From an uncultured bacterium (lineage in GTDB: Bacteria; Elusimicrobiota; Elusimicrobia; Elusimicrobiales; Elusimicrobiaceae), in the NCBI GenBank assembly GCA_949294085.1, contig CASFFX010000006.1, forward strand, positions 104,256-168,255: 64,000 nt of DNA, read 5' to 3'. The position numbers were made by a program, and so were the translations under genes. Below, piece after piece: positions 8,738 through 56,633 of this stretch; the first letter of the stretch is position 1; each line of letters begins with the position of its first letter. A model generated the notes under the pieces. The model was not told the DNA's origin, searched no databases, and saw nothing but the letters and a program-made list of their open reading frames with translations.

Positions 8738-8766
8738 TTGACAAATACCGACGATTTTGCTATAAT
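8738..8766 (+). promoter_or_regulatory. Consensus promoter ahead of the phage packaging genes
   Basis: TTGACA (8738-8743), a 17 base spacer, and TATAAT (8761-8766) with an extended -10 TG. Both boxes are perfect consensus. The flanks TTGACAAATAC and TGCTATAATAAAAA recur at 21252-21281 ahead of the portal gene. It faces the terminase genes, but a terminator starts at the predicted +1. Confidence 0.85.
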
Positions 8767-8772: not shown

Positions 8773-8809
8773 ACTTACAAAACCAACGCTTCGGTTTGTA
8801 AGTTTTTTT
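8773..8809 (+). terminator. Terminator hairpin at the predicted transcription start
   Basis: ACTTACAAAACC (8773-8784) pairs with GGTTTGTAAGT (8793-8803), with one bulged A, followed by seven T. It begins where the upstream promoter should start transcription, so the default product would be a ~35 nt hairpin RNA, or else the hairpin caps a read-through mRNA. Between here and the terS start (8810-8902) I see only a short GGGCG/CGCCC inverted repeat. Confidence 0.7.
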
Positions 8810-8902: not shown

Positions 8903-9334
8903 ATGCCTTCTAAAATACGTTCCCGCGGGGAAAAACCTGCCGGGAAATCTTTGCGTTATCAACCCGAATTTTGCGGGCGGCTGTTGGAGTTTTTTGACGT
9001 GCCGCCTTTTACCGTAACTGAAGTAACCAAGCGCGACGGGTCCATCTCGTTGGTGGAAACGGCGGCGCAGCTACCCACGTTTGCCGCTTTTGCCAAAATG
9101 CTGGGCACCACGTGCGACGTACTGGAAAGCTGGGAGAAAAAACACCCGGCCTTCCGCGCGGCCGCTCAAAAAGCGCGCGATTTGCAGGGGAATATTTTAA
9201 TTCAAAACAGCCTGCGGGGAAATTATTCGGCTTCGTTTGCCGTGTTTACGGCTAAAAATCTGTTGGGCTGGAAGGACGGCAAGGAAGAGCTGGCCGCGGC
9301 GCCGTTGGTGGTGCGCTGGGAGAGTGAAAAATGA
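8903..9334 (+). CDS. terS: Phage terminase small subunit (probable)
   Basis: 143 residues. The ATG at 8903 follows GATGGAG. Small terminase subunits recognise phage DNA and hand it to the large subunit. Support: position directly before and overlapping terL by four bases (ATGA), right length, and a helix-turn-helix-like N-terminal half containing the TFAAFAKMLGTTCDVLESWE segment, a pattern typical of TerS DNA-binding domains, followed by the FVFTAKNLLGWKD-like C-terminal segment common in small terminases. The frame is open further upstream, but that part lies over the promoter and hairpin and has no RBS. Confidence 0.8.
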   Translation: MPSKIRSRGEKPAGKSLRYQPEFCGRLLEFFDVPPFTVTEVTKRDGSISLVETAAQLPTFAAFAKMLGTTCDVLESWEKKHPAFRAAAQKARDLQGNILIQNSLRGNYSASFAVFTAKNLLGWKDGKEELAAAPLVVRWESEK

Positions 9335-10783: not shown

Positions 10784-12088
10784 ATGAATATGAGGAAATT
10801 TGTTTTGCTTTTGTGTTTGTTTGCCGCCTTGCCGCTGTACGCCCAAAAAAATCTGCTGCCGGCCGTGCGTAAGGGCGTTGCTGCCCCTGCGGGGAAAACG
10901 CTTACACCCCCCCAAATGGCCGGGCTGGGTGCGAAAGAAAGTGTGGCTTCACTTGAATTTTTGAAACGCTTGTTTCACCGGCAAGCGCCCGCGGCGGTTT
11001 CCTCGGCTGCTTCGGCAGAAAAGAAAGTCAAAACGCTTCACCAACAGCTCAATCGGATGCTGCAGGACAAGCAGTTTAATAAAGCGGTGATTGAAAATTT
11101 GAATACGCTGCAGGAAATCCGCAAATTGTGGATTAAGAGCCAGGCGTTTGGGAAAAACTGGTTTTTCAAAAATGTGTACAAGCCCATGATGACGCAAACC
11201 CCGTTTGCTTATCGCAATAACCGGTTGGTGCTGATTGGATCTCGCCATTTGCTTGAAAAAATAGAGTGGTTGGCCCAGTACCCCAGCCAGGGCAGAAAAA
11301 ATATGCTTCGCATGACGGGCCGCCATACCATGGCCGCGTTGGCCAAGCGGCTGACGAACGAGAAATTGATTTTTCTGGGGGAGCGGCACTTTATCCCGGA
11401 AATTCAGCAAAATGTGTATGAATTGATTTCGCAGCTGAAGAAGCTCAACCCCCAGCGGCGGGTGGTGGTGTTTACGGAATTTGCGGATTTACCGTACAAG
11501 GCCCCTCCGCAGGAAGAAGAACTGCTGGATACGTATTTTCGCAGGGTCCGCGGGGAACAGATTGTGCCCCTGAAAAAGAAGATGAATCAGCCTATCAATC
11601 TGGCCCAATATGCGTTTGATTTGTTTGAAAAATTGATGGCGGAAAACATAGAAATTTATCCGCTGGAAGACCGCAAATTGTTCCTTTTGGTTATGATGGA
11701 ACAAGGAGACTTGAACGAGGTGGAAAGTTCGGCCTTGGCAATGATGCACCGCAACAAAAGCTGGGCGCGCGTGATGGAAAGCAAAATGGCGGAAATCCGC
11801 CAAACAGACCCGGATGCGCTTTTTATCGTTTATGGCGGCAAGGGCCACAGCTCGTGGGTAATGCCCTATTCTCTTCCCAAGTTCTTTGCCAACGAACGTC
11901 CTGCGGTGGTGGACTTTTCGTTCCTGCATGCGTCGCCCTCCAATACGCTGTACAGCGTGTGGGGCGAAAAAGAACCGCTGTTTCGCAATCATTGGCGGCA
12001 GACGGTCTATTTTTGGCAGGGTGCAGACGCCCGGCGTTTGGCGCAAAGCGCGGGATTTGATTACATGGTAGTGTTGCCCCACGATTAA
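10784..12088 (+). CDS. Secreted ChaN/Tiki-superfamily protein, array member 1
   Basis: 434 residues. A signal peptide is clear (MNMRKFVLLLCLFAALPLYAQ, cleavage after AQ); there is no lipobox. The C-terminal ~250 residues carry the pattern of the haem-binding ChaN-like family (PF04187, Tiki/TraB superfamily): GERH at 199-202, VVFTEF about 30 residues later, IYPLED, RNKSWARVMESKM, and YGGKGHSSW. Campylobacter ChaN is an iron-regulated haem-binding surface lipoprotein; other superfamily members are metalloproteases, so either role is possible. The N-terminal ~180 residues are helical and variable among the paralogues. The ATG at 10784 follows a purine-rich site (GAGAAAAGGG); Met3 is an alternative. 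First of eight genes lying between terL and the portal gene. Confidence 0.8.
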   Translation: MNMRKFVLLLCLFAALPLYAQKNLLPAVRKGVAAPAGKTLTPPQMAGLGAKESVASLEFLKRLFHRQAPAAVSSAASAEKKVKTLHQQLNRMLQDKQFNKAVIENLNTLQEIRKLWIKSQAFGKNWFFKNVYKPMMTQTPFAYRNNRLVLIGSRHLLEKIEWLAQYPSQGRKNMLRMTGRHTMAALAKRLTNEKLIFLGERHFIPEIQQNVYELISQLKKLNPQRRVVVFTEFADLPYKAPPQEEELLDTYFRRVRGEQIVPLKKKMNQPINLAQYAFDLFEKLMAENIEIYPLEDRKLFLLVMMEQGDLNEVESSALAMMHRNKSWARVMESKMAEIRQTDPDALFIVYGGKGHSSWVMPYSLPKFFANERPAVVDFSFLHASPSNTLYSVWGEKEPLFRNHWRQTVYFWQGADARRLAQSAGFDYMVVLPHD

Positions 12089-12103
12089 GATATCCAGGAG
12101 CTT

Positions 12104-13303
12104 ATGATGATAAAAAAACTGTTCTTGCTGCTTTGCTGTTTGAGCCTGACGCTTCCGCTTGCGGCGCAAAAACAGTGGTACTCTGTCCTGAAGGCGTGGC
12201 GAAGCAGGGGATTTCAGCGCCAGGTGGACAAAGTGCTCCGACAACAAAACCAGGCGCTTCCGCGGCGGCCTTCTTCCTTTCCAAAAAGGGCTGTTTCTTC
12301 GGTAAAAGAATTGGAAGAACGTGTGGCGGAAACGTATCAGCAAGTAAAACACTTGCAGCAGGAACATTTCCCGGATCTTAATGAAATTCCATTTGAAACG
12401 CTGCAGAAACCCCTGCAAAAGACGGAGCTGTTCTCGCTGCAGCAAAACGAGGCCGCGTGGGTGGCGACCCAAAGCATGCTGCGCAAAATAAATTGGCTGC
12501 GTGCCCTGCCGAAACAGGGTAAAAATTTGCTAAAAAAAGTGCGTGGAGAGGCCGCTTTGGAACGCCTGGCGCAGGAAGCAAGCCGTGAAAAATTGGTGTT
12601 TTTGGGAGAAAAACATTTTTGTTACAACGCCCACCTGGTCCTGTTAAAATTTTTGGATTTGTTAAAACAGCAAAATCCCAATCGGCGCATTGTGCTGTTT
12701 AGTGAGTTTTTGTTCTTGCCGGAAGAAGGCACAAAAAACGCGTCCAGTTTGGCCTCTTATTACCGCCGGGTGCAGGCCGGGCAAGTGCCTAAATTGACAC
12801 GTTCAGAAATTTCCATGATGCAATATGCCGGTTTATTGTTTCATCATGCGGTGCGCTCGGGGATAGACGTTTATCCGCTGGAAGATCCTGTCCAGTACAG
12901 ATTGTTGGAAAAAGAGTTGCCCAAAGACGGCGATTTGATGAACCGGGCTATCCGCGCCCGCAATAAAACTTGGGCGCGGGTCATGCGGGCCAAAATGGCC
13001 GAAATCCGCCAAACGAATCCAGACGCGCTGTTTGTGGTTTTTGCCGGCATGGGGCATACGTCGTGGGCGGCGTCGGGCTCGCTTCCTAAATTTTTTGCGG
13101 ATGAAAAGTCGATTGTGTTGGAAGTGTCGGAAGAAATGCCTTCCCGCCATAATCTGCTTTACCCCGTTTGGGGAAAAACCGATCCGTTTTTTGCGCCGCA
13201 TGAGGAATTGACCCTCTACTTTTGGACGGGAAAAAACGCCCGGCAGCTGGGGCGGCAAGCCGGCTTTGACTATGCGCTGGTTGCCCCGTTGATTCTTGAG
13301 TAA
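12104..13303 (+). CDS. Secreted ChaN/Tiki-superfamily protein, array member 2
   Basis: 399 residues, 15 bases after member 1, with a good RBS (CAGGAG). Signal peptide MMIKKLFLLLCCLSLTLPLA, cleavage near AAQ. Conserved sites: GEKH at 168-171, VLFSEF, VYPLED, RNKTWARVMRAKM (from about 286) and FAGMGHTSW (about 314). The N-terminal variable part is shorter than in member 1. Same presumed exported haem/metal-linked function; the spacing argues for one transcript with its neighbours. Confidence 0.8.
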   Translation: MMIKKLFLLLCCLSLTLPLAAQKQWYSVLKAWRSRGFQRQVDKVLRQQNQALPRRPSSFPKRAVSSVKELEERVAETYQQVKHLQQEHFPDLNEIPFETLQKPLQKTELFSLQQNEAAWVATQSMLRKINWLRALPKQGKNLLKKVRGEAALERLAQEASREKLVFLGEKHFCYNAHLVLLKFLDLLKQQNPNRRIVLFSEFLFLPEEGTKNASSLASYYRRVQAGQVPKLTRSEISMMQYAGLLFHHAVRSGIDVYPLEDPVQYRLLEKELPKDGDLMNRAIRARNKTWARVMRAKMAEIRQTNPDALFVVFAGMGHTSWAASGSLPKFFADEKSIVLEVSEEMPSRHNLLYPVWGKTDPFFAPHEELTLYFWTGKNARQLGRQAGFDYALVAPLILE

Positions 13304-13307
13304 TCTT

Positions 13308-14606
13308 ATGAAACAGAAAATTTTCAGAAATGCCATGTCAGTTGGTTTAATCTGCGGCTTGCTGGGGGTGCCTTCTTTGTGGGGACAAAAACAGCTGCCA
13401 GCCGTCGTGTGGTCTAAGAAAACCCCCCTGCAAATCCTGCGGGCGGATAAAATGCCGTTTGCACCGCTTAAAATGCCCAAAATCAAGGGGCCTATTTCGT
13501 ATATCCCGCCCAAACGGATAGACTTAAAGCGGCTGGAACAGCTGTCCTCGGAGATGGAGCGCCTGGTGCTGTTGCGGCGCCCGTCCAGCGGGCTGCTGCG
13601 AAATTGGGAGGCCATAGCCACTTTTTCCAAGGGGCAGGCGTCCCCGTCCATGCGCTTGTTGGCGGCGGTATTGTCCCGCGTGGGGTTAACCCACCGTGAA
13701 ATGAAACTGTTTTTGAATTTCTATCCGTTTATGACTACGGAAACCAAATTCTCCTATCAGAACAATACCCGCTTGCTGCAGTTGGCGGCGTATTTTAAGA
13801 CACAAGTAGATGATTTGAAGCAGCAGAAAAAAGAGATTTTGGGCGCGCTGTCTATCACGCAAATGGACCGTCCCCGTATGCTGACCAATGCCATACCGGA
13901 TACCGCCCGGCTGATTATGGTGGGTGAAGTGCACAACCGCGCCGGCCAGCGCCAGCAGTTAATTGCGTTGCTGCGGGAATACCGGGCGCGCTATCCCCAG
14001 CGGAAGATGGTGTTGTTTTCCGAATTTTTGCCCAGCTATCACCCGCGGTTTTGGAAGGTGGGGCAAGCCATTCCGGCGGAATTTTTTGACAAGCGGCCTG
14101 ATTTTTCCAACGAGGTTTACCAGTTGGGCAAAAAGTTGGATATGGAAATTTATGGCTTGGAAGATTTGCGGTTGGTGTATACAACCATTCCCGCAGAAAG
14201 CCAGCTGCCGGTGTTGGAAAGCAATATGTCCTTTTTGGGGATGATGGTGCGTAATGAGCATTGGGCAAAAATCATGCAGCAGGTCATGCAGCGTATCCGC
14301 CAGCAGGACCCGGAAACGGTCTTCTTTGTGTATGCGGGAAACGGCCATTTGAACAAGGCGGTGGTAGGGTCGCTTTCTTATAATTTGCAGGAATACAACC
14401 CGTTTGTGATCTCCTTGAACGACGGATTTCAGGACGGATTTTTGGGCTTGCTGCTGAAAAAAGATTCGGATGTATTGTCCGAAGTTTCTGGGGAATACCG
14501 CGTAACTTGGAAAGAAGGAAAAAATTTCTCCGAGGCGGTGGGCTTTGACGTCAAAGTGTTGGTGCCGTTGGAGCTGAAACCGACGGATTATCTGCCCAAT
14601 AAATAA
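13308..14606 (+). CDS. Secreted ChaN/Tiki-superfamily protein, array member 3 (divergent)
   Basis: 432 residues starting four bases after member 2. The signal peptide is less regular (MKQKIFRNAMSVGLICGLLG, then VPSLWGQ). Core sites are kept: GEVH at 206-209, VLFSEF, IYGLED, RNEHWAKIM and YAGNGHLNK. But the motif after the second His is HLNK instead of the HTSW shared by members 2, 4, 5, 6 and 8, and the stretch MAEIRQTDPDALF is altered to MQRIRQQDPETVF. With member 7 it forms a divergent subgroup. It is followed by a 119 base gap that holds the second shared leader. Confidence 0.78.
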   Translation: MKQKIFRNAMSVGLICGLLGVPSLWGQKQLPAVVWSKKTPLQILRADKMPFAPLKMPKIKGPISYIPPKRIDLKRLEQLSSEMERLVLLRRPSSGLLRNWEAIATFSKGQASPSMRLLAAVLSRVGLTHREMKLFLNFYPFMTTETKFSYQNNTRLLQLAAYFKTQVDDLKQQKKEILGALSITQMDRPRMLTNAIPDTARLIMVGEVHNRAGQRQQLIALLREYRARYPQRKMVLFSEFLPSYHPRFWKVGQAIPAEFFDKRPDFSNEVYQLGKKLDMEIYGLEDLRLVYTTIPAESQLPVLESNMSFLGMMVRNEHWAKIMQQVMQRIRQQDPETVFFVYAGNGHLNKAVVGSLSYNLQEYNPFVISLNDGFQDGFLGLLLKKDSDVLSEVSGEYRVTWKEGKNFSEAVGFDVKVLVPLELKPTDYLPNK

Positions 14607-14681
14607 CGGGGCCGTTTTGAACCACCGCCTTTTGCGGATTGGACGGACCTAGAAAATATAGGCCCTTTTTGGAAGAATACC

Positions 14682-14725
14682 TAGGTCTAAAGGCTCTTTT
14701 TTCTGCGACGAGAAACCGATATAGT
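14682..14725 (+). repeat. Shared leader, copy 2 (upstream of ChaN-like gene 4)
   Basis: Gap-free counterpart of 10740-10783, ending at the start codon of member 4. Just upstream, ACCTAG (14647-14652) can pair with CTAGGT at the start of this leader. Its presence marks member 4 as the start of a second sub-operon and points to block duplication of the array. Confidence 0.7.
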
Positions 14726-16066
14726 ATGAGTATGAAGAACACGCTTGCTATATTTATTCTGTTTCTTTCGCTGCCGCTTTGTGCCACAACGCCGAGGTCT
14801 GTTCTCCCTTGGGGAAAGGGCGCGGTCCGCACGACGGTCAATAAACAAACTTTTAATACGCTTCGGGCAACCGCTTCTTCTCAGTTTGCCCGCCGCCTGC
14901 AGCGCCAGACGGCAGGCTTACTGCTGAAAAACAAAACATCCCGCTATGCCACGACGCAAATCAATCCGCCGGAAACGGCTTTGAACCGGGATGTTTTTGC
15001 CCAATGGCTTGAGCGGCATTATCCTAAAAACGTCAGCGCCGTGCTGGAACAGAAAAACCTGAATTTAATTTCCCAAATTAAGCAAACGTGGAAGGGAAAC
15101 GAACGTTTCCTGCAGAATTGGCTGTTTGAAAACCTCTACAGTCCGTTGCCGCTTCCTACTCCTTTTTCCTTAAAAAATAACCGAATTATTTTGGCTTCTA
15201 GCCGTCGGTTTTTTGAAAAAATGCGCTGGCTGAAAAAACTCCCCGGCCAGGGCCACGACGATATGGTGTCTTACAGCGGCGACGATGCCGTGCACAAATT
15301 GGCCCAAAAATTGGTGGGAGAAAAATTGATTTTGCTGGGCGAAATGCACCATATGCAGGAAATTCATTTTGCCATTTCCGATTTGTTGGAAGAATTACAG
15401 CGGCTGTGCCCGGGCCGGCGCATTGTGCTGTTTACGGAACTGATTGATTTGCCGAACAAAACGCCTGCACCGGGGGCTACGCTGTCCACGTATTATCGCC
15501 GCCCCGGAGACGAAACGTTTGAAAATTTGAAGAAAGACGACCCAGCCAACGAACAGCTCATTGACTATGCTCCCTATGTTTTTTACCGCGCCATTTATAA
15601 CGATATAGAAGTGTACCCGTTGGAAGACAAAGCCCTTTTTAATATGATTCGCAAAGAACAGGGTCCGCTGTACCGGGCGGAAACGTCCGCCCTGGCCATC
15701 GCCGTGCGCAATAAATCGTGGGCGCGGTTTATGGAAACGAAAATGGCGGAAATTCGTCAAACGGACCCGGACGCTTTATTCCTCGTGTACGCGGGGATGG
15801 CGCATACGTCGTGGCTGATGCCGTATGCCATAGGCAAGTTTTTTGCGTCGGAAAATCCGACCGTAGTGGAAATCGCTTCCACCTTCCCAAGCGATTTAAC
15901 TGGGGTGTATGCGGTGTGGACGGAAAACGATCCGTTCTTTGCGCTGCGCCAAATGCCTTCGCTTCATTATTGGAAAGGCGCGGACGCACGGCTGTTGGGC
16001 AAAAATACAGGCTTTGATTATACGCTGATTTTGCCTTCCGAGGACATGTCGGTAGAACCATGGTAA
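14726..16066 (+). CDS. Secreted ChaN/Tiki-superfamily protein, array member 4
   Basis: 446 residues. Signal peptide MSMKNTLAIFILFLSLPLCA. Sites: GEMH at 205-208, VLFTEL, VYPLED, RNKSWARFMETKM and YAGMAHTSW; note Ala instead of Gly before the second His. It shares with member 1 both the leader and the longer N-terminal half (for example NWxFxNxYxP), so members 1 and 4 are the closest pair, consistent with duplication of a block of three genes. It overlaps member 5 by seven bases. Confidence 0.8.
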   Translation: MSMKNTLAIFILFLSLPLCATTPRSVLPWGKGAVRTTVNKQTFNTLRATASSQFARRLQRQTAGLLLKNKTSRYATTQINPPETALNRDVFAQWLERHYPKNVSAVLEQKNLNLISQIKQTWKGNERFLQNWLFENLYSPLPLPTPFSLKNNRIILASSRRFFEKMRWLKKLPGQGHDDMVSYSGDDAVHKLAQKLVGEKLILLGEMHHMQEIHFAISDLLEELQRLCPGRRIVLFTELIDLPNKTPAPGATLSTYYRRPGDETFENLKKDDPANEQLIDYAPYVFYRAIYNDIEVYPLEDKALFNMIRKEQGPLYRAETSALAIAVRNKSWARFMETKMAEIRQTDPDALFLVYAGMAHTSWLMPYAIGKFFASENPTVVEIASTFPSDLTGVYAVWTENDPFFALRQMPSLHYWKGADARLLGKNTGFDYTLILPSEDMSVEPW

Positions 16067-17367
16067 ACAAACTTTCTTTTTTAAGTGTGCTGGTGGCAGG
16101 GTGCTTATTGCTCCCTTTGGACGCGTTTGGATACAAAGAAGCTGCGTTGCGGAATTTGCTTGGCAAGCGGCTGACCTCTTTGACCCGCCGTGCGCCTGCC
16201 GTGCGTGTGCCGCCCTCTCATTACCGAAAAGTGCTTTCCACGGTGCCCATGGTAAAAAATCAAAAGCTTAAAAAAGCCAAAAAAACTTGGCGCAATCTCC
16301 CGCTGGCGGAACGCTTAAAAATGCCGCAGAACGTTACGTATCAGTCGGCGGTGTGGGTGGCGTCCCGCATGACGTATTTTGATGTAATCAATTTTTGGAA
16401 GGAGCATATTTCGCCGGAAGACATGGATAATCCGATGCTGCGTTATATTTTTATGCCTTCTTCCCAGGGAACGGCTACCACGATTAAAAATAACAAAGTT
16501 ACTTTGTTTTTTAGCAAAAAATTATGGGAGCGCATGAGCTGGCTGCGCAACCGGCCCGGACAGGGACATAATGATTTGCAAAGCATGTACGTAATGGACA
16601 AACCGTTGGACGAACTGGCCCGGCGCCTGTCCAAAGAAAAAATGGTCTTTTTGGGCGAAATTCATTATCGGGATTCTATCCAAAAAACGGTCATCAATTT
16701 AGTGCGCAAAATTAAAGAGCAGACGCCTAACCGCCGGGTGGTGGTGTTTAGCGAATTTTTGTTTTTGCCTAAATCTTCGGCAGGCCACCAGACTACTCCG
16801 GCCACGTATTACCGCCGGGTACAGGCGCAGCAAATACAGGCAGTCTCCCCGCTGAAGCTGCCGCGGGGAATCTATGCGGAAGAGGTTTTCTACCGCTTGT
16901 CGGATATGGGGGTGGAACTCTACCCGCTGGAAGACCGCGTGCACCAAAAACTGATTGAAAAGGATTTGCCGGAAGAATACGAAACGGTTCTCTTTACGGG
17001 GGAACGCAACAAAATTTGGACTCGCGTGATGGATGCCAAAATGGCCGAAATCCGCCAAACGGACCCCGATGCGCTGTTTATCGTGTACGCGGGGATGGGA
17101 CACACATCGTGGTTGATGCCATATTCCCTGCCGCGGTTTTTCGCACAGGAAAATCCGGCGGTGGTGGAGATTACCCTGGCGCATCCGTCCTCCTACAATT
17201 TGTTGTCGTTGGTGTGGGGAAAAGAGGATCCTTTCTTTGAAGACCGTTCCGGTACTTCCTTGCATTTTTGGAAAGGCAAAGACGCGCGGCTGTTGGCCCA
17301 AAAGGTGGGGTTTGACTATTCTCTGACCGTTTCTGCCCGTCCGGATTTTATGGAGTATAATCCATGA
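16060..17367 (+). CDS. Secreted ChaN/Tiki-superfamily protein, array member 5
   Basis: 435 residues; its ATG lies inside the end of member 4 and its stop overlaps member 6 by four bases, so translational coupling is likely. Signal peptide MVNKLSFLSVLVAGCLLLPL; the Cys at residue 15 is not followed by a normal lipoprotein context, so I treat it as an ordinary secreted protein. Sites: GEIH at 199-202, VVFSEF, LYPLED, RNKIWTRVMDAKM, YAGMGHTSW. Confidence 0.8.
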   Translation: MVNKLSFLSVLVAGCLLLPLDAFGYKEAALRNLLGKRLTSLTRRAPAVRVPPSHYRKVLSTVPMVKNQKLKKAKKTWRNLPLAERLKMPQNVTYQSAVWVASRMTYFDVINFWKEHISPEDMDNPMLRYIFMPSSQGTATTIKNNKVTLFFSKKLWERMSWLRNRPGQGHNDLQSMYVMDKPLDELARRLSKEKMVFLGEIHYRDSIQKTVINLVRKIKEQTPNRRVVVFSEFLFLPKSSAGHQTTPATYYRRVQAQQIQAVSPLKLPRGIYAEEVFYRLSDMGVELYPLEDRVHQKLIEKDLPEEYETVLFTGERNKIWTRVMDAKMAEIRQTDPDALFIVYAGMGHTSWLMPYSLPRFFAQENPAVVEITLAHPSSYNLLSLVWGKEDPFFEDRSGTSLHFWKGKDARLLAQKVGFDYSLTVSARPDFMEYNP

Positions 17368-18677
17368 AACGTATTTTGATTTGTTTATTGCTTTTGGGGT
17401 GGGCGGTGCCGATGCAGGCGCAACCGCCGGTGCTTTCCGGCGCGCGTGCGGTCGGCCGCCGCGTTTCCGCTCCCGTGCAAAAACTGCGCGTCCCGCCGCC
17501 CGTGCGAAAATTGCGCGTTCCGCCGCAGGTTTCCGCCCCTCGTGCCAAAACTCCTTTGCCCGCTTCTGCCGCTAATGTACAGTATATTTGGGGCACAAGT
17601 GCAGGGGCGAGGCCCTTTTCGGTTGCCAAGTGGGTCAAAAAACACTTGGTGCGGCCGCCGGTTCCGCTGTCGGGCGTGTCCGACCGAGCGCTGGAGAAGG
17701 AAGTGAAACGCAGCTATGCCGAAGTAAAAAAATTGTGGAAACGCCGCTTTGGAGACGTGAGCCAAGTGCCGTTGCTGACGGCGGTGTTTCGTCCTTCCAA
17801 GGAGATTTCGGTCGTTTCGGTGCGCAGTAACCGCATTAGCTATTTGGTGGGAAAGGAATTTGCCGATAAAATTGATTGGCTTCGGGCCCGCCCGGGGCAA
17901 GGGCGTCAGGAGCTGCAGCGCTTATCGGGCAAGGCCGGGTGGAACGAACTGGTTCAAAATCTGTCGCGCGAAAAATTGATTATGCTGGGGGAACAGCATT
18001 ACAACCGGGGAATTCAAGATACGGTATTAAAATTGGTGGGGGATTTGAAAAGACAAAATCCTTCCCGTCGGGTAGTGCTGTTTACCGAATTTTTGTATTT
18101 GCCTGCGCACGCGGCCGGTTCCCGCAACACGCTGGCGACGTATTACCGCCGGCCCGATCCCAAGAATTTGCGGCCGGTGCAGCAGACGGATAAAATGAGT
18201 TACGCCCCGCATACGTTGAAGCCGTTGATTCAAGCGGGCGTGGAAGTTTATCCGCTGGAAGACAAAACTCAGAAACGCGTATTTAATAAAGAAATGCGGG
18301 ACGGATTTATCACAGTGCTGGCCATGACGCAGCGCAACAAGAACTGGGCGCGCGTGATGGAGGCCAAAATGGCGGAAATCCAAAAGGCGGACCCGGACGC
18401 GCTGTTTGTGGTGTATGCGGGGTTAGGCCATACGTCGTGGCTGGGGCCGATGTCGCTGCCGAAGTTTTTTGCCCCGTATTCGCCTGCGGTTGTGGAGTTT
18501 GGCCCGCAGCATCCGTCTGTTTACAATACGCTTTTTACGGTATGGGGCGCTAGTGACCCCTTTTTCCAGCCGACGGCTTTTACCATGCACCGCTGGCAGG
18601 GGCCGGACGCGCGGGTGTTAGCCCAAAAAACCGGGTTTGATTACATGGTGGCGGCACCAGATTATTTTAACTTCTAG
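17364..18677 (+). CDS. Secreted ChaN/Tiki-superfamily protein, array member 6
   Basis: 437 residues, coupled to member 5 through an ATGA overlap. Signal peptide MKRILICLLLLGWAVPMQAQ. After it comes a basic, low-complexity stretch (about residues 25-60) with three repeats of a V-x-K-L-R-V-P-P type unit, not seen in the other members. Sites: GEQH at 209-212, VLFTEF, VYPLED, RNKNWARVMEAKM, YAGLGHTSW. Otherwise the same family and inferred role. Confidence 0.8.
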   Translation: MKRILICLLLLGWAVPMQAQPPVLSGARAVGRRVSAPVQKLRVPPPVRKLRVPPQVSAPRAKTPLPASAANVQYIWGTSAGARPFSVAKWVKKHLVRPPVPLSGVSDRALEKEVKRSYAEVKKLWKRRFGDVSQVPLLTAVFRPSKEISVVSVRSNRISYLVGKEFADKIDWLRARPGQGRQELQRLSGKAGWNELVQNLSREKLIMLGEQHYNRGIQDTVLKLVGDLKRQNPSRRVVLFTEFLYLPAHAAGSRNTLATYYRRPDPKNLRPVQQTDKMSYAPHTLKPLIQAGVEVYPLEDKTQKRVFNKEMRDGFITVLAMTQRNKNWARVMEAKMAEIQKADPDALFVVYAGLGHTSWLGPMSLPKFFAPYSPAVVEFGPQHPSVYNTLFTVWGASDPFFQPTAFTMHRWQGPDARVLAQKTGFDYMVAAPDYFNF

Positions 18678-18692
18678 GGGAGGCGTGCACGT

Positions 18693-19808
18693 ATGAAAAA
18701 ATGGTGGATATTGGTTGTGTTCCTGTTAAGCGCGGGGTTAGTGTCGGCCCTGCCGTACAAAAACTTAAAGCCGATTTTGTCCTCTTCCGGCAAGCGGGCG
18801 CTGCGCCGCACCGCCAAACAGCCGTTCACGCTGGGCAACCACCGCATTAAAGTTCCGCCGGCGGTGCTGCGCGTGCACGAGCAGGATTTGCAGATTTCAC
18901 ATCTGGAAATGCAGCTGAACCCCAATGTGTACCGCAAGGCGATTACCTCCCGCAACAATGCACGCATTTTGAAATCGCTGCAGCAATTTTTGAAGGATTA
19001 TGAAACGTTCCATGCCAAGGCGCCGCAGATTGCCGCCAATTTGGACGGGCGGGTGTGGAAGGGAAAAATCCCGTATGCAAATTACCTGCCCAAAGACTTA
19101 AATACGCTGTATGTGGGCGAGGTGCACGATGTCCCCGGGCTGGCGGAAGAAGTGGCGGATTTGCTGGCGCAGCTGCCCAAACTGTATCCCAACCGACGCA
19201 TTTATTTGGCTACCGAATTTTTGCCGGCGTACGAGGACAGAGCTTTCTCGCTGGACAATGCCATCACGGATCCGAAGGAAATTACGTACTTGCTGGAAGG
19301 AAGCCCCCGGCGGACTTCCCGCGTGCTGTATGCCGCGGTAAAAAACGGAATTTCCGTCGTGGGATTGGAAGAAGAAATGGGGATTATCCGCGAAATTATC
19401 CGCCAGTCAAACCAGTATCCGACGGCAGAAATGTATGAGGATTTTGTAATTTCGTTTGAAGGGGTGCGCTTTCGCAACCGCACTTGGGCCAAAACCCTGC
19501 ACGCCTTGCGCCAGGCGGACCCGGACGCACTGATTGTGGTGTATGCGGGGTACGGCCATTTGGGTTATCACCGCGATTCCAACCTGCCTTCGCTGGTGGG
19601 CGGAAAGTCGTTTTTGGCGCTGTTTACGTCGGCCGAATACTTGCCGCTCAATAACCCGCTGTTTCGCTATATGAACGAAAACAAAGCCTTGCGCGAAGCT
19701 TTTTATGCGTTTCCCAAGGCCAAATTGGTGGAACGCTGGAAAAAGCCCACCCGCTACAAAAAAATTCTCGGGGCGGATATGGCGGTTATTTTGCGTCCCC
19801 AACAATGA
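18693..19808 (+). CDS. Secreted ChaN/Tiki-superfamily protein, array member 7 (divergent, short)
   Basis: 371 residues, the shortest member; the N-terminal variable region is reduced. RBS AGGGGAGG. Signal peptide MKKWWILVVFLLSAGLVSA. Sites: GEVHD at 142-146, which is the form closest to classical ChaN, LATEF, VVGLEEE in place of YPLED, RNRTWAKTL, and YAGYGHLGY. It also lacks the KMAEI block of the main subgroup. It pairs with member 3 by its HL-type second motif. Confidence 0.78.
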   Translation: MKKWWILVVFLLSAGLVSALPYKNLKPILSSSGKRALRRTAKQPFTLGNHRIKVPPAVLRVHEQDLQISHLEMQLNPNVYRKAITSRNNARILKSLQQFLKDYETFHAKAPQIAANLDGRVWKGKIPYANYLPKDLNTLYVGEVHDVPGLAEEVADLLAQLPKLYPNRRIYLATEFLPAYEDRAFSLDNAITDPKEITYLLEGSPRRTSRVLYAAVKNGISVVGLEEEMGIIREIIRQSNQYPTAEMYEDFVISFEGVRFRNRTWAKTLHALRQADPDALIVVYAGYGHLGYHRDSNLPSLVGGKSFLALFTSAEYLPLNNPLFRYMNENKALREAFYAFPKAKLVERWKKPTRYKKILGADMAVILRPQQ

Positions 19809-19848
19809 TTTCAAGCAATAAACGAAGCGCGCAAAAGGAAGCAACAAA

Positions 19849-21113
19849 ATGATGAAACAAGGGTTTTCTTGCCTGTTAGTGTGCCTGATTGGCACAAGCC
19901 CGTTATTTGCCCAAAAAACCCTTTTGCCGGATTTTACGGCCGTTTTGCAACGTTCTGCCTTGCGTGCGGAGCGGAACCTGCCCGCCGGCCTTGCGCCGCG
20001 GCGGCTGCCTGCCTTGGCCGGAATTAAAAACACCGCCGCTGTGCCGGCGGCTTCCCTTGAGCGGGTGTTTGAAAATAAGCGCCGCGTTTATCAGCGGCAG
20101 ATGGCCACCCGTTTGGCGGCGCAACTGCAGTAACCGGTGCTGCAAAGCGTAGCCCAGGTACTGGATATTTGGAAAAAAGAAACCCCCTTGTTTGAGCAGG
20201 AGCCTTTGTTTGCGTATGTGTTTGCTCCCACTTTTTGCCCCAGTGTTACCTCGCTTAAAACCAACCGTATCAGCCAAGTGGGCTCCCGGCGGCTGATGGA
20301 AAAGTGTATTGGCTGCGTGCCCGCAAAGAATTGGGAAAACAACGTCAGGCCCGGTTTGCTTCTTCCCATGCGGTGGAATATTTGTCGGCCTCTTTAGCCG
20401 GCGAAAATTTGATTATGCTGGGGGAAATCCATCATTTCCCGTCCGTACATCAGGCGGTGGGGGATTTGTTGCTTCAGCTGAAGGCCGATTATCCCAACCG
20501 GCGCCTGGTGCTGTTTACCGAATTTGCCCGCTTGCCCCAGGTGAATCCCGCTTCGCGCAATACGGTGGCCACGTATTACCGCCGCCGGCCGACGGGATTG
20601 AAGCCCAGCACGCTGGCCACGGAGCCTTTCCCGTATGCGACGAGGTTATTTTTGCGGTTGTTAAAAGCAAGGATAGAAATTTATCCGCTGGAAGATGCCG
20701 AACAGCAGCAAGTCTTTGCGGGGGAAATGCTCCCCGAAGAGGATACCGGCGCGTTTGTGCTGACGGAGCGGAATAAAAGCTGGGCCCGCGTGATAGAAGC
20801 CAAAATGGCGGAAATCCGCCAGGCGGACCCCAACGCGCTGTTTGTGGTGTATGCGGGGTTGGGCCATACGTCGTGGCTGATGCCCGGCGCGATGCCCAAA
20901 TTTTTTGCCGCGGAGCATCCGGCCGTGGTGGAAATTACGCAGCAATATCCTTCCGATTTTTCCGCTCTGCGGTTGGCGTGGGGAGCGCAAGATAAATTTT
21001 TTGCTCCCTGCGGTTCACAGCCTGTTTTGTATTACTGGACCGGGGCGGACGCCCGCCTGTGGGGCAAACAAGCGGGGTTTGACTACGCCTTAATTGTGCC
21101 TCCGCTTCCCTAA
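19849..21113 (+). pseudogene. ChaN/Tiki-superfamily gene, array member 8, disrupted
   Basis: The first 94 codons encode a signal peptide (MMKQGFSCLLVCLIGTSPLFAQ) and the family's variable region, then an in-frame TAA at 20131-20133 interrupts it. The same frame continues with family-like sequence to about 20300, where the reading frame must change: GAAAAGTGTATTGG near 20300 restores the expected EKVYWLRAR if one A is added to the A run. From 20304 to 21113 the rest is intact (GEIHH, VLFTEF, IYPLED, RNKSWARV, YAGLGHTSW). So there are one nonsense and one frameshift lesion. If the downstream part were translated alone it would lack a signal peptide. Confidence 0.85.
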
Positions 21114-21251: not shown

Positions 21252-21281
21252 TTGACAAATACAAAAATATTATGCTATAAT
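21252..21281 (+). promoter_or_regulatory. Consensus promoter ahead of the phage head genes
   Basis: TTGACA (21252-21257), 18 base spacer, TATAAT (21276-21281) with extended -10 TG. It shares TTGACAAATAC and TGCTATAATAAAAA with the promoter at 8738-8766. Downstream, 21290-21395 holds no gene; the transcript would cross the opposite-strand small gene before reaching the portal gene. Confidence 0.85.
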
Positions 21282-21451: not shown

Positions 21452-21631
21452 TTAAACCGGCGTAGCCGCCGTTACAAACGCCAAAATGCCCACCAGTACT
21501 ACCGTCAGCAAGACGGATACCCACATAGCGGAACGCTTGCTCGCGCGCGGAAAAATTTTACGCGTGATGATGTAAAACCCCGGAACCGCCAGTAAAATTA
21601 CAAAAATCAAAATAGTAATAATCCCCATCAT
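21452..21631 (-). CDS. Small two-helix membrane protein inside the phage module
   Basis: 59 residues beginning MMGIITILIF, with a hydrophobic helix at residues 3-22, a basic loop (TRKIFPRASKRS, 23-34), and a second helix at 36-56. A strong RBS (AAGGAGGG) lies upstream and a terminator downstream, which is why I accept so short a gene. It runs against the phage genes, between their promoter and the portal gene, like a moron. Two-helix proteins with a positive loop occur among holins, toxins and superinfection-exclusion proteins; I cannot choose. Confidence 0.7.
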   Translation of the reverse strand: MMGIITILIFVILLAVPGFYIITRKIFPRASKRSAMWVSVLLTVVLVGILAFVTAATPV

Positions 21632-21719: not shown

Positions 21720-23315
21720 ATGAAACATAATACACAACCAAAAACCGATTATTTGCGCCTTTATGACGAGCTCAAGCGCGAGAGCGCCTCGTGGACGGCC
21801 GTCTGGAAGGAGCTTTGCGCCTACCTGGCGCCCACCCGCGGCTTTTTTGACGGGCAAACCCCCAATCAGGGCCGCCGCATTGACCACAAAACCCTGCTGG
21901 ATTCCGACCCGTGCCTGGCGGTGGAAGTATTGTGCGCCGGCATGATGAGCGGGCTGACCAGCCCTTCGCGCAGTTGGTTTGATTTGACGCTGGCTCCCGA
22001 AGGGCTGATGAATTTGCCCGGCGCGCGGGAGTGGGTGTTTGAAATCAAAAAACGCCTGGAGGACGTATTTGCCAAAAGTAATGTGTACAGCGTGCTGCAC
22101 GGGTTTTACCAGGAAATTTCCGTCTTTGGTACGGCGGCTTTTTTGCTGGAAGAGGACGCGCAAAAAGGAATTCGCTGTCGTCCGTTCACCATTGGTGAAT
22201 ACTGCCTGGGCACCGACGCCGCCGGCCGGGTGAACCGTTTTGGACGGGAATTTTTTATGACGGCCGAACAAATGCAGCAAGCTTTTGGCGCCGAAGCGCT
22301 GCCGCCGTCTGTCCGGCGGGAGTGGGAAGAAAACCGTCCGCTTAGCTGGCATAAAATTATTCACTTAATCGTGCCCAACCGGGCCTGCGATCCGACCAAA
22401 CAAGATAACGCCCATATGCCGTATGTTTCCGCCTATCTAACGGAAAACGGCCACCTGCTGCACCGGGGCGGATACCGGGAGTTCCCCGTCATTGCCGCCC
22501 GGTGGGAAGTGAAAAACGCCGCCGACGCGTACGGCCGCGGCCCGGGGTGGAAGTGTTTGGGCGACGTGAAAATGCTGCAAAAAATGCAAAAGACCAAACT
22601 CGTTGCGCTGGACAAAAGCACCAATCCGCCGATGATGGTGTCCTCCAACGTGCAGGGGGAAGTGAATTTGCTGCCCGGCGGCATTACCCGCTATAACGGC
22701 ACGACCGACGCCGCCGTAAAACCCGCCTATCAGGTCCAGCCGGATTTGAAATCGCTGGAAGCGTCTATCCAAAGCGTGCGCGAAACGATACGCGCCCAAT
22801 TTTTTGCCGACGTATTTTTAATGCTTTCCGCCCAGAATTATTCCAATATGACCGCCGCCGAAGTGGCCGAACGCCACCAGGAAAAACTGCTGGTGCTGGG
22901 GCCCGTGCTGGAACGGCTGAAAAACGAATTGCTGGACCCCTTGATTGACCGGGCCTTTAACCTGCTGTTTCGGCAAGGGCTTCTGCCACCGCCGCCCGAA
23001 AGCATTGAAGGGATGGAAATGAAGGTGGAATATGTGTCTATGATTGCGCAGGCGCAAAAAGCGGCGGGGCTGAGTGCGCTGGTGCAGGGGTTAAATTTTG
23101 CCGCATCTCTGGCGTCCGCCCAGCCGAACGTGCTGGACCGCGTGGATTACGACCGCGCTTTGCAGGAAGGACTGAACACCTTGGGCGTGGCTCCGGCTTT
23201 ATTGCGGAGCGAAGAAGAAACGGCGCAAATCCGTACCGCCCGCCTGCAAACGCTTCAGACCGCCGCTTCGGCACAGCCGTCCGGCGCGGGGGCGGCCTCT
23301 CCCTCCGAAAAGTAA
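21720..23315 (+). CDS. Phage portal (head-to-tail connector) protein
   Basis: 531 residues, normal for podoviral connectors. The N-terminus matches the bacteriophage head-to-tail connecting protein family (PF12236): the YDELKRESASWTAVWKELC-like helix, the GMMSGLTSPSRSWFDLTL block near residue 75, and SVFGTAAFLLEED near 135. It forms the dodecameric ring through which DNA is packaged and ejected. The start ATG is taken as the first in frame; the RBS is poor, and a GC hairpin lies just upstream. It begins the head gene block, followed by a 188 base gap with the second GC hairpin and no gene. Confidence 0.92.
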   Translation: MKHNTQPKTDYLRLYDELKRESASWTAVWKELCAYLAPTRGFFDGQTPNQGRRIDHKTLLDSDPCLAVEVLCAGMMSGLTSPSRSWFDLTLAPEGLMNLPGAREWVFEIKKRLEDVFAKSNVYSVLHGFYQEISVFGTAAFLLEEDAQKGIRCRPFTIGEYCLGTDAAGRVNRFGREFFMTAEQMQQAFGAEALPPSVRREWEENRPLSWHKIIHLIVPNRACDPTKQDNAHMPYVSAYLTENGHLLHRGGYREFPVIAARWEVKNAADAYGRGPGWKCLGDVKMLQKMQKTKLVALDKSTNPPMMVSSNVQGEVNLLPGGITRYNGTTDAAVKPAYQVQPDLKSLEASIQSVRETIRAQFFADVFLMLSAQNYSNMTAAEVAERHQEKLLVLGPVLERLKNELLDPLIDRAFNLLFRQGLLPPPPESIEGMEMKVEYVSMIAQAQKAAGLSALVQGLNFAASLASAQPNVLDRVDYDRALQEGLNTLGVAPALLRSEEETAQIRTARLQTLQTAASAQPSGAGAASPSEK

Positions 23316-23503: not shown

Positions 23504-23809
23504 ATGAACGAAAAACAACTGGTAAAACGCAACGCCTGCGATTTGCAGGCCGTCTTAAAAACCGTACAAGGCCGCCGTCTTTTGTGGCGGATTTTGCAGG
23601 CGGCACAAATCCGTCAGCACGGCTTTGTACCCGGCGACCCCTATGCCACCGCTTTTCATTGCGGGCAGCGAAGTATCGGGCTTTTTCTGCTGGCGGAGAT
23701 AGAAGCCGCCGCCCCGGCTGCCTATGCGCAAATGCGGGGGGAATACCTGTCGCAAGTGCAATCCGAACAAAATGAAATCAATCGGTTAAACGAGGAGATA
23801 AATTCATGA
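23504..23809 (+). CDS. Bbp19-like phage head protein
   Basis: 101 residues. The pattern RRLLWRILQAAQI...FHCGQRSIGLFLLAEI...YAQMRGEYLSQ matches the small Bbp19-like proteins found between portal and scaffold genes in Bordetella BPP-1-like podoviruses. The role is unproven; probably a virion or head-assembly component. The C-terminal 20 residues are a charged helix. It overlaps the scaffold gene by four bases. Confidence 0.75.
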   Translation: MNEKQLVKRNACDLQAVLKTVQGRRLLWRILQAAQIRQHGFVPGDPYATAFHCGQRSIGLFLLAEIEAAAPAAYAQMRGEYLSQVQSEQNEINRLNEEINS

Positions 23810-24395: not shown

Positions 24396-25373
24396 ATGGC
24401 AATTATTGCTGATAAACATTACAGTTTGGTGGATTACGCCAAACAGTTTGACCCTTCCGGCCAAGAACTGGCCATTGCCGAGGTTTTAAGCCAGTCCAAC
24501 GACATCATCGCTGATGCACTGGTGATGGAAAGCTCGTTAGACAGCGGCCACGAATACGCCGTGCGCACCGGAATCCCCGAGGGCACCTGGCGCCGCGCCT
24601 ACCAAGGCATAGAACCCGCCAAAGCCACGACCAAAGTGGTGGTGGAATCGTACGGCACGTTGTCGGCCTATTCCGTGGTGGACAAACTGGTGGCCGAAAA
24701 AGGCGGCCATGTGGACGCGGTGCGCACGGGGCAGTCCCGCGCGATTATCGCCGGGATGTCCAACACGATGGCGTCCAACCTCATTTACGGCAACGTCGGC
24801 AAAAATCCGGAACGCTTTACCGGCTTGGCCGCGCGCTACTGCGAATTGGAAGGCGCCGAAAGCTCCCGCAACGTGATTAACGCCGGCGGCGATACCGACG
24901 GGCAAAACTCCTCCATCTACTTGGTGGTGTGGGATACGGACAAAGTGTTTACCTTCTTCCCCAAAGGCTCCAAAGCCGGCATCCAGCGCGTGGACCACGG
25001 GCTCGTCAACCACATTGACGCCGACGGCAACGAATACCCGGCCTACAAGGAATACTTTGAGTGGAAACTGGGCCTGGCCGTGCAGGATTGGAGATACGCC
25101 GGCCGCATTTGCAACATTGACGTCAACAACGTGCCCGCCGACCTGATTGACCAAATGTGCGACCTGGAAGAAAGAATTCAAAGCCTGTCCATGGGCAAAC
25201 CCGTGTGGTATATGAACCGCACCGTTAAGGCAGCCCTTAGAAAGCTGACCAGCAACCGCACCAACGTCCAGTACACGCCGGACCAAATTACGTCCCGCCC
25301 GCTGATGACGTTCAACGAAATCCCGGTGCACATTTGCGACGCAATTACCGACACCGAAGACGTGGTGAAATAG
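24396..25373 (+). CDS. Phage major capsid protein
   Basis: 325 residues. It resembles the GP7-type major capsid protein of podoviruses: N-terminal SLVDYAKQFDPSGQELAIAEVLSQSNDI, the GTWRRAYQGIEPAKATTKVVVES block near residue 68, and a central domain with SIYLVVWDTDKVF and the FEWKLGLAVQDWRYAGRICNI stretch typical of HK97-fold capsids. It should form the icosahedral shell. Neighbours (scaffold before, Bbp16-like after) are in canonical order. Confidence 0.92.
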   Translation: MAIIADKHYSLVDYAKQFDPSGQELAIAEVLSQSNDIIADALVMESSLDSGHEYAVRTGIPEGTWRRAYQGIEPAKATTKVVVESYGTLSAYSVVDKLVAEKGGHVDAVRTGQSRAIIAGMSNTMASNLIYGNVGKNPERFTGLAARYCELEGAESSRNVINAGGDTDGQNSSIYLVVWDTDKVFTFFPKGSKAGIQRVDHGLVNHIDADGNEYPAYKEYFEWKLGLAVQDWRYAGRICNIDVNNVPADLIDQMCDLEERIQSLSMGKPVWYMNRTVKAALRKLTSNRTNVQYTPDQITSRPLMTFNEIPVHICDAITDTEDVVK

Positions 25374-25382: not shown

Positions 25383-25766
25383 ATGTTATTGGATCAAAAT
25401 GCGGTCCTGTCCGACCAGCAAGCCGTGGCGGCTTCCGCCGCTTCCGAACACGTGATTGATTTTGGAACAGCCGGCAATGCCGCGCCGGGGGCGCTGTTTG
25501 CGGTGGCCCGGGTGGACGAAGCCTTTGCCGGGGTAACCCAGCTGAGCGTTTCGCTGCAGACGGACCAATCGGCCGACTTTTCCGCAGCGGAAGAATTACT
25601 GTCCGCCACGTTTACGCAGGGGGACTTAAAAGACGTCAAAAATCTTTTTGCCGTTGCTTTGCCCAACGGGGCCAAGCGTTTCCTGCGGGCCTATTATACC
25701 GTAACCGGTGCGGGCTCGGCCGGCAAGCTGTCCTGCTTCCTAACCGATGCGGTGGACATGAAGTAA
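25383..25766 (+). CDS. Bbp16-like capsid cement/decoration protein
   Basis: 127 residues, start after AGGAGG. MLLDQNAVLSDQQAVA, SEHVIDFGTAG and the beta-rich remainder match the Bbp16 family that follows the capsid gene in BPP-1-like podoviruses, where it decorates or stabilises the shell. The family and order are known; the function here is inferred. Confidence 0.78.
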   Translation: MLLDQNAVLSDQQAVAASAASEHVIDFGTAGNAAPGALFAVARVDEAFAGVTQLSVSLQTDQSADFSAAEELLSATFTQGDLKDVKNLFAVALPNGAKRFLRAYYTVTGAGSAGKLSCFLTDAVDMK

Positions 25767-26363: not shown

Positions 26364-26939
26364 ATGATATCCAAAATTACAGTTTGCAATTTGGCTTTGG
26401 CTCAGCTGGGGCAGGCTCCTATCTCTTCTTTGGAGCAGGATGATGAAAAAGCAAGAAGGCTTAATTTGTTTTATGAACCGATTCGCGATGAGGTACTGCG
26501 CACCCATAATTGGGCTTTTGCCGGGGCCGAAGAGCCGCTGGTGCTGATTGAACAAAACCGGGATAAATACGTATATAAATATCCTACGCAGGCCTTGTTT
26601 GTACGGCGGGTGTTTACACAGGACGGTACAAAAAATCTGCCTTTTCGCGAGATTTTTCGCACCGATTTGCACAGCCGGGTGCTGGAAACCTCGGCCCCGC
26701 AGGCCTATGCCGAATATACCCGCCGCATTTTAGACGAAAACCTGTTTGATCCGGCGTTTGTAAAGTCCTTCTCGCTGGCGTTGGCGTGCGATTTGGCCGT
26801 TGCTCTGACGGGGGACAGCACGCTGGCCAGCCAAATTTTGCAAAAATATACCCTAAGCTTGGACGAAGCCCGCCGCAGCAATATGACGGAAAACTATACC
26901 CGCGCGGCCTCTTCCGATGCGTTTACCGAGGTGCGCTAA
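26364..26939 (+). CDS. Phage tail tubular protein A (adaptor)
   Basis: 191 residues, close to T7 gp11. Starts MISKITVCNLALAQLGQAPI with the ARRLNLFYEPIRDEVLRTHNWAFA segment that is diagnostic of this adaptor family. It sits between portal and nozzle in the podoviral tail. It overlaps tail tube B in a TAATG stop/start, so the two are coupled. Confidence 0.9.
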   Translation: MISKITVCNLALAQLGQAPISSLEQDDEKARRLNLFYEPIRDEVLRTHNWAFAGAEEPLVLIEQNRDKYVYKYPTQALFVRRVFTQDGTKNLPFREIFRTDLHSRVLETSAPQAYAEYTRRILDENLFDPAFVKSFSLALACDLAVALTGDSTLASQILQKYTLSLDEARRSNMTENYTRAASSDAFTEVR

Positions 26940-30439: not shown

Positions 30440-30470
30440 TTTACACTCCTTCAATAGAAATAACGTATTC

Positions 30471-30476
30471 ATTATA
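30471..30476 (-). promoter_or_regulatory. -10 box of the reverse-strand moron
   Basis: TATAAT on the minus strand, 32 bases ahead of the moron's ATG and just outside the start codon of the divergent gp13-like gene. No good -35 at normal spacing, so a single-box assignment. Confidence 0.45.
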
Positions 30477-39593: not shown

Positions 39594-39737
39594 GGCCGCC
39601 GTGCGGATTGGTGTATGGAACGGCCCGCCGCCCTGGATGGGCAAAAGGGCTTGATTCGTTTTTTTTTTTTGATAAATTTTGCGTATGAGCAAAAAACATC
39701 AAAAACCCTTCCCGGCAGGGCAAAATGCCGGATTTAC
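39594..39737 (+). repeat. Direct repeat of pilin promoter and leader, copy A
   Basis: About 145 bases, nearly identical to 41720-41866 (GCCGTGCGGATTGGTGT..., CCCTGGATGGGCAAAAGGGC, TTGATTCG, poly-T, GATAAATTTTGC, then the codons [17 protein letters not shown]). This copy carries 12 T in the tract (39659-39670). It drives pilin 2. A TTGATT and an AT-rich TAAATT flank the tract as possible -35/-10 boxes. Confidence 0.85.
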
Positions 39738-55472: not shown

Positions 55473-55640
55473 AAATTTCTCCTTCTTGCGGGCCGCTTAA
55501 CGGGGCCCAAACCGTCTTATATCATACAAAATTTGCCGCGGCGTTTGGCGGCGGCGTATTTGGCAGAAGCCCAAAATTTTAGTTATAATGAGTATTGCAA
55601 TTTGCAACCAAAAAGCTATACTTTTGATAATGGAGATTTT

Positions 55641-56114: not shown

Positions 56115-56120
56115 CCTCGT

Positions 56121-56624: not shown

Positions 56625-56633
56625 GGAGAGATT

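What the first reader, a model, noticed from the sequence alone, without database searches (positions are those of the whole stretch)
10784..21113. Tandem array of eight secreted ChaN/Tiki-like paralogues inserted between terminase and portal of a phage module
Seen: eight same-strand genes of similar length, each with a signal peptide and the ordered sites GE-x-H, (F/L)-(S/T/A)-E-(F/L), a later R-N-x-x-W and A/G-G-x-x-H. They fill 10.3 kb in the exact place where terL should be followed by the portal gene. Known: this site pattern is that of the haem-binding ChaN-like family (PF04187) in the Tiki/TraB superfamily, whose members bind haem or act as metalloproteases. Inference: a phage or phage-derived element carries an expanded family of exported proteins, perhaps for haem/iron capture, cleavage of surface targets, or competition. 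I know of no described phage cargo of this kind.
Basis: partly seen in the sequence, partly recalled or inferred. Interest (0 to 1): 0.85.

Follow-up and report, generated by a model that had tools for sequence, protein, structure and literature searches.

The report
Exported enzyme array in domesticated phage locus
A row of seven intact genes (plus one broken copy) for exported TIKI-fold enzymes sits between the DNA-packaging and shell genes of a phage-derived locus that a whole genus of gut bacteria has kept and inherited like a normal gene, so the locus looks like a domesticated virus particle (possibly a gene transfer agent) carrying its own lineage-specific set of secreted hydrolases.

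Summary
The array is real. Seven intact genes and one pseudogene, all on one strand, lie between terL and the portal gene. They encode exported TIKI/ChaN/Ere-fold proteins. The five catalytic residues of that superfamily (E, H, E, R, H) are invariant in 71 of 71 members resident in this locus, despite about 20% overall identity. Fold searches return HopBA1, ChaN, RRSP and EreC.

The phage module is not an ordinary prophage. An epsilon15/Bordetella-phage-like head-tail cluster is present, almost always single-copy, in 54 of 58 sampled genomes of the genus (Candidatus Avelusimicrobium, Elusimicrobiota). Capsid divergence tracks UvrA (r=0.90). Capsid dN/dS is 0.03 and no integration or replication gene was seen. 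Two perfect extended -10 promoters, a class otherwise seen here only before infC and a probable rRNA operon, precede terS and portal. It is best read as a vertically inherited, domesticated virion locus and a gene-transfer-agent (GTA) candidate, the second podovirus-type one after FpGTA.

The array is old but optional cargo at the end of the terminase operon (1-11 genes in several clades, none in most). Locus residence changes only 4 times on the gene tree (shuffled mean 31). Hydrolase activity is likely; haem capture is less supported. The role in release, uptake or exclusion is inference.

The parts
8738..8766 (+). P1: perfect TTGACA-17-TATAAT promoter with extended -10 (TG), upstream of terS
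   Evidence: one of only four such sites in the 1.5-Mb genome; conserved at terS in 24/35 named loci (12/12), 27/35 at >=11/12
8773..8809 (+). inverted repeat plus T-tract directly downstream of P1 (attenuator- or operator-like)
   Evidence: scan score passed in 30 of 32 distinct P1 leaders (in a few of these the best-scoring hairpin lies further downstream), 2 of 42 P2 leaders, 22 of 200 random controls
8903..9334 (+). terS, small terminase
   Evidence: PHROG 3064, E=4e-17; start placed after P1
9331..10647 (+). terL, large terminase
   Evidence: PHROG 2 E=1e-52; PF03237
10784..12088 (+). array gene 1, exported TIKI-fold protein
12104..13303 (+). array gene 2
13296..14606 (+). array gene 3 (divergent lineage, orthologues in other species)
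14726..16066 (+). array gene 4
16060..17367 (+). array gene 5
17364..18677 (+). array gene 6; AlphaFold model, domain pLDDT >90, TIKI fold
18693..19808 (+). array gene 7, last intact gene of the array; this lineage is the most widely shared one
   Evidence: (model pLDDT 89)
19849..21113 (+). array gene 8, pseudogene (TAA ~20131, frameshift ~20300)
21252..21281 (+). P2: perfect extended -10 promoter between array and portal
   Evidence: 34/49 named loci perfect, 41/49 >=11/12
21452..21631 (-). 59-aa predicted two-helix membrane protein (PGFYIITRK...SKKSA), present in nearly all module loci, antisense to the P2 leader
   Evidence: helices read by eye
21720..23315 (+). portal / head-tail connector
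   Evidence: PF12236 E=3e-158; PHROG 332
23504..23809 (+). Bbp19-like protein
   Evidence: PF25181
23806..24384 (+). scaffold/protease
   Evidence: PHROG 458
24396..25373 (+). major capsid protein (GP7 family)
   Evidence: PF20911 E=9e-114; 85-98% identical across the genus
25383..25766 (+). Bbp16-like protein
   Evidence: PF21190
25767..26363 (.). AT-extreme spacer (27% GC), conserved in position in 40 of 40 relatives
26364..26939 (+). tail tubular A-like protein
   Evidence: PHROG 394
26939..29548 (+). tail tubular B-like protein
   Evidence: PHROG 376 E=8e-195
29606..30472 (-). membrane protein, inside the module on the opposite strand, conserved in relatives
30498..30968 (+). internal virion protein
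   Evidence: PHROG 308 E=5e-27
30971..31456 (+). internal virion protein (weak match)
   Evidence: PHROG 805/418
31465..32865 (+). conserved 466-aa module protein (ejection-protein position)
32874..34361 (+). tail fibre
   Evidence: PHROG 1640 and others

Best explanation
The array is an operonic set of exported TIKI-superfamily hydrolases carried as long-standing but optional cargo at the 3' end of the terminase operon (P1-terS-terL-array). It belongs to a vertically inherited, domesticated podovirus head-tail locus of Candidatus Avelusimicrobium, which is a gene-transfer-agent candidate. Shown here: the fold, the invariant catalytic residues, the operon position, the vertical inheritance and purifying selection on the virion genes, and the deep association of array and locus. 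Inferred: the particles are still made; the array is transcribed with the terminase from P1; and the array enzymes cut envelope or surface proteins or esters, most likely helping particle release or recipient contact or protecting non-producing kin. Duplication, loss and divergence would then follow lineage-specific surface targets.
For: Fold: AlphaFold models of two array proteins (pLDDT 83 and 89) match HopBA1, ChaN, RRSP, EreC and BcR135. Catalytic set: E210/H212/E242/R324/H356 invariant in 71/71 locus-resident members, the same set shown essential in RRSP (PMC6254334). Operon: intergenic gaps of -8 to +41 with one of 119. Locus: capsid gene in 54/58 sampled genus genomes at 85-98% identity, absent from sampled other genera of the family. 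Distances track UvrA, r=0.90/0.93/0.84 for capsid/TerL/portal, 0 of 5000 permutations as high. dN/dS 0.028/0.070/0.085 vs UvrA 0.035. Capsid codon adaptation at ribosomal-protein level. Two perfect promoters conserved. No viral contig above 66% capsid identity. Locus residence changes 4 times on the 108-row gene tree vs 31 shuffled.
Against: No particle, packaged DNA, transfer, expression or enzyme activity could be tested. About two thirds of genus members with the locus have no array (15 of 52 named portal loci have family genes upstream), so it is not needed for the virion. Paralogues of the family also live far from the locus. No recognised endolysin or activator was found in the locus. 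TIKI-fold members differ: ChaN binds haem.
Confidence: 0.6

Rival explanations
1. An ordinary temperate podovirus carries the array as a moron (lysogenic-conversion cargo).
For: Complete head-tail set; real related prophages exist in the genus and related viral contigs at 64-66% capsid identity.
Against: Single copy in nearly all species, co-divergent with UvrA; no integrase, repressor or replication gene in or next to the module, whereas related prophage regions in the genus carry integrase, HTH regulators and large polyvalent ejection proteins. Three of the four sister phage contigs reach from terL to portal and have no array.
Confidence: 0.1
2. A decaying prophage remnant; the array is there by chance.
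For: The eighth array gene is broken; a few portal copies contain stops.
Against: No stop in any full-length capsid copy, capsid dN/dS 0.028, promoters kept at consensus genus-wide, same position of the array in several clades and a strongly clustered location label.
Confidence: 0.05
3. The locus is domesticated but not for DNA transfer: for example a killing or signalling particle (PBSX/tailocin-like) or a structural use of capsids.
For: GTA function cannot be read from sequence (PMC11841831); rRNA-class promoters suggest strong synthesis; the module lacks the 950-1900-aa ejection proteins of its prophage relatives.
Against: terS, terL and portal are kept, with TerL and portal under purifying selection, which suggests that DNA is still packaged.
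Confidence: 0.25
4. The array proteins are ChaN-like haem-binding proteins for iron capture.
For: PF04187 is the only Pfam family hit by the family; ChaN 2G5G is the second PDB match for one model.
Against: The whole 2His/2Glu/Arg hydrolase set is invariant; ChaN is absent from the top 50 for the second model, where HopBA1 and EreC lead; no lipobox is seen in the sequences.
Confidence: 0.12
5. The array proteins inactivate peptide signals or surface receptors to prevent self-uptake or superinfection, as TraB/PrgY of the same superfamily does for plasmid pheromones (recalled, not tested here).
For: Exported, multi-copy, fast diverging (dN/dS 0.12-0.31), linked to a transfer-type locus.
Against: No receptor or signal identified; absent from most species with the same locus.
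Confidence: 0.2

Closest known systems
FpGTA of Faecalibacterium (PMC12946183)
   Same: Podovirus-like GTA-like element kept across a gut genus; operon with TerS, TerL, portal, scaffold and capsid.
   Different: Different phylum; FpGTA has packaging data; no exported-hydrolase array was mentioned in the passages read; sequence homology between the two was not tested.
RcGTA / CcGTA (alphaproteobacterial gene transfer agents; PMC11841831, PMC11150451, PMC13236601)
   Same: Vertically inherited phage head-tail cluster; CcGTA is controlled by anti-termination past a terminator and needs LypABC, including its peptidase domains, for cell lysis.
   Different: Different ancestral phage; here the hydrolases are exported TIKI-fold proteins inside the cluster, and no activator is known.
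phiV10/epsilon15-like and BcepC6B/Bordetella-like podoviruses
   Same: GP7 capsid, Head-tail_con portal, Bbp16/Bbp19 and tail tubular proteins.
   Different: At most 41% capsid identity; the domesticated locus lacks replication and integration genes.
TIKI superfamily: ChaN, RRSP, HopBA1, EreC/BcR135
   Same: Fold and the 2His/2Glu plus Arg active site.
   Different: About 10-18% identity in the fold matches; extra N-terminal helical domain; exported; expanded to up to 30 matches per genome in one bacterial genus.

Membership tests
TIKI/ChaN/Ere superfamily | parallel beta-sheet core fold | tested here: met
   two AlphaFold models; PDB hits HopBA1, ChaN, RRSP, EreC
TIKI/ChaN/Ere superfamily | catalytic 2His/2Glu plus conserved Arg | tested here: met
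   71/71 locus-resident members vs RRSP E3900/H3902/E3930/R4001/H4030
ChaN (PF04187) | profile match above curated cut-off | tested here: inconclusive
   1 of 8 above cut-off; 42 of 50 relatives at E<=0.01
ChaN (PF04187) | lipoprotein signal (lipobox Cys) | tested here: not met
   by eye only: cleavage-type A-x-A then Gln (Gln at >=90% of rows), no Cys; no signal-peptide program run
ChaN (PF04187) | haem binding | not testable with these tools
   needs protein
Gene transfer agent | phage-derived head-tail and packaging cluster | tested here: met
Gene transfer agent | vertical inheritance with purifying selection | tested here: met
Gene transfer agent | no integration, replication or self-spread | tested here: met
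   no such gene in the module or the flanking genes scanned; no close viral contig. Unlinked genes not tested
Gene transfer agent | particles carry near-random host DNA and transfer it | not testable with these tools
   needs particles
Active prophage | integrase/att, regulator, replication and lysis genes | tested here: not met
   contrast

The most novel reading that the evidence does not exclude
A podovirus-type gene transfer agent, transcribed from the strongest promoter class of the genome, is fixed in a whole genus of Elusimicrobiota, and in several lineages it has recruited an expanding battery of secreted TIKI-type proteases or esterases into its terminase operon as dedicated release or recipient-recognition factors.
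Probability: 0.3. Interest if true: 0.88.

Novelty: new variant of a known kind. Interest (0 to 1): 0.74.

Why it matters
Very few gene transfer agents are known outside Alphaproteobacteria, and only one with podovirus-like form has been reported (2026). A conserved, testable candidate in a phylum of gut bacteria, with matched consensus promoters and linked enzyme cargo, would widen both the phylogeny and the mechanics of domesticated viruses. It would also give a function to a large lineage-specific family of secreted TIKI-fold proteins.

Tried and rejected
Scanning genome contigs with the family alignments failed (no conserved stretch), so the capsid was used. Sequence search of the PDB with the family profile gave only a meaningless hit; fold search was needed. 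NCBIfam gave only chance hits. No phage record or viral contig encodes a relative of the array proteins tried. Rfam: nothing in the module. Literature searches found no earlier description of a domesticated phage locus or GTA in Elusimicrobiota. The ordinary-prophage and decaying-remnant readings were rejected on selection, co-divergence and synteny.
Full report
Observation. The window lies in a 1.5-Mb Elusimicrobiota genome (G000). Named relatives are gut metagenome-assembled genomes, among them Candidatus Avelusimicrobium and UBA1436. Between terL (9331-10647) and the portal gene (21720-23315) are seven intact same-strand ORFs and one pseudogene, the last carrying an in-frame TAA near 20131 and a frameshift near 20300. 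Gaps between genes run from -8 to +41 except one of 119, as in an operon. All eight hit PF04187 over the region around GExH, one above the curated cut-off.

Array proteins. The AlphaFold model of gene 6 has an N-terminal signal helix, a disordered basic/proline-rich linker, a helical domain and a C-terminal alpha/beta domain at pLDDT above 90. Foldseek against the PDB ranks HopBA1 and ChaN first, with RRSP, EreC and BcR135 close behind. Gene 7, only about 22% identical to gene 6, gives HopBA1 and EreC. TM-scores over the whole query are low (0.30-0.37 for the best hits) because only the core domain matches. Of 149 collected family members, 145 keep E210, H212, E242, R324 and H356, and all 71 that reside in the phage locus keep them. 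In RRSP the equivalent two His, two Glu and the Arg were each shown to be essential for cleavage of its substrate (PMC6254334). Hydrolase activity is therefore the likely common function; the substrate is unknown.

The phage locus. The module is a full podovirus head-tail set: TerS, TerL, portal, Bbp19, scaffold, GP7 capsid, Bbp16, tail tubular A and B, internal virion proteins and fibre. The capsid gene is present in 54 of 58 sampled genomes of the genus, one copy each except two genomes with a second, more distant copy, at 85-98% identity, and in none of the sampled other genera of the family. Of the four genomes without it, G012 and G006 carry other module pieces, such as terL fragments, and a G083 family gene was classed as locus-resident. 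Public phages reach at most 41%, and viral contigs at most 66%. Pairwise distances of capsid, TerL and portal follow UvrA (r=0.90, 0.93, 0.84; 0 of 5000 permutations as high; pairs share a tree, so this is supportive, not a formal co-phylogeny test). dN/dS among close species is 0.028, 0.070 and 0.085, against 0.035 for UvrA. Several species share flanking host genes on one side (MATE, FtcD, KsgA), and many across the genus share the O-antigen-ligase-like neighbour on the other. Genuine relatives of this phage type exist in the same genus as prophage-like regions with integrase, HTH regulators or polyvalent ejection proteins.

Control region. Two perfect TTGACA-TATAAT promoters with an extended -10 stand before terS (8738) and before portal (21252); they are the only such sites in the window. 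In the whole genome there are four; of the other two, one precedes infC-rpmI-rplT and the other is probably an rRNA leader. They are conserved across the genus. Right after P1 lies an inverted repeat TACAAA...TTTGTA with a T-tract; 30 of 32 distinct P1 leaders pass the terminator score (in a few the best-scoring hairpin lies further downstream), against 2 of 42 P2 leaders and 22 of 200 random controls. This resembles an attenuator; CcGTA is known to be governed by anti-termination (PMC11150451), but no anti-terminator was identified here. The capsid gene has ribosomal-protein-like codon usage (0.78; ribosomal proteins 0.69-0.79; most neighbours 0.51-0.66, UvrA 0.71, one pilin 0.81).

Array and locus together. 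Most species have a terL-portal gap of 0.3-0.5 kb (median of all array-free gaps 424 bp) holding P2 and an antisense 59-aa membrane protein. Where family genes are present (1 to 11 copies) they lie between terL and P2, so they extend the terminase operon. On a tree of 108 members the label 'in the locus' changes only four times (shuffled mean 31; quick LG+G4 tree), and the lineage of gene 7 is shared by window-like species and G028, G030 and G019. Array orthologues diverge fast (dN/dS 0.12-0.31) but keep the active site. Locus-type paralogues have also moved out to other places (L048, L061, L062). The family is nearly confined to this genus, with weak relatives in other genera of the same family.

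Interpretation. The locus fits a domesticated virion cluster. Whether it is a gene transfer agent cannot be decided from sequence; the field itself states that experimental validation is required (PMC11841831). FpGTA of Faecalibacterium is the only podovirus-like case reported so far (PMC12946183). The array adds something not seen in the descriptions read: exported TIKI-fold hydrolases built into the packaging operon. In Caulobacter, recruited peptidase domains (LypABC) are needed for GTA-mediated lysis (PMC13236601), which makes a release role plausible; a role in recipient contact or exclusion is equally untested.

Limits. Nearly all genomes are metagenome assemblies; arrays can be misassembled or cut at contig ends. 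Promoter, terminator, signal-peptide and membrane-helix statements rest on simple scans or inspection. One start of tail tubular B used in the scripts was a base off frame, which affects only its labels and its codon value.

Noticed in passing
21452-21631 (-): A 59-aa two-helix membrane protein with a PGFYIITRK..SKKSA core is present in nearly every module locus of the genus, antisense to the P2 leader; possibly a holin-like or antisense-controlled lysis factor.
   Followed up: partly
25767-26363: AT-extreme spacer (27% GC in a 53% GC region) between Bbp16 and tail tubular A, found in 40 of 40 relatives with 0.45-1.2 kb and 21-36% GC; could be a silencer, packaging or protein-binding region.
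   Followed up: partly
8773-8809: Inverted repeat with T-tract directly after the perfect promoter P1; core TACAAA/TTTGTA nearly invariant, outer pairs vary together; operator or attenuator.
   Followed up: partly
36340-36840, 39679-40209, 41943-42428, 55533-57167: Many scattered type IV pilin-like genes; in other species a pilin gene sits in the terL-portal gap instead of or beside the array (L067, L098, L116, L227).
   Followed up: partly
L111, L112, L113, L114: Genuine related prophages in the same genus with polyvalent ejection proteins (ART-PolyVal, LPD domains) and an integrase; natural comparison set for the domesticated locus.
   Followed up: partly
29606-30472 (-): Conserved membrane protein on the opposite strand inside the tail genes, very weak holin-profile match, function unknown.
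   Followed up: no
L059, L066, L065, L049: Large family arrays away from any phage gene (11 genes in L059), a second expansion of the same exported TIKI proteins.
   Followed up: partly
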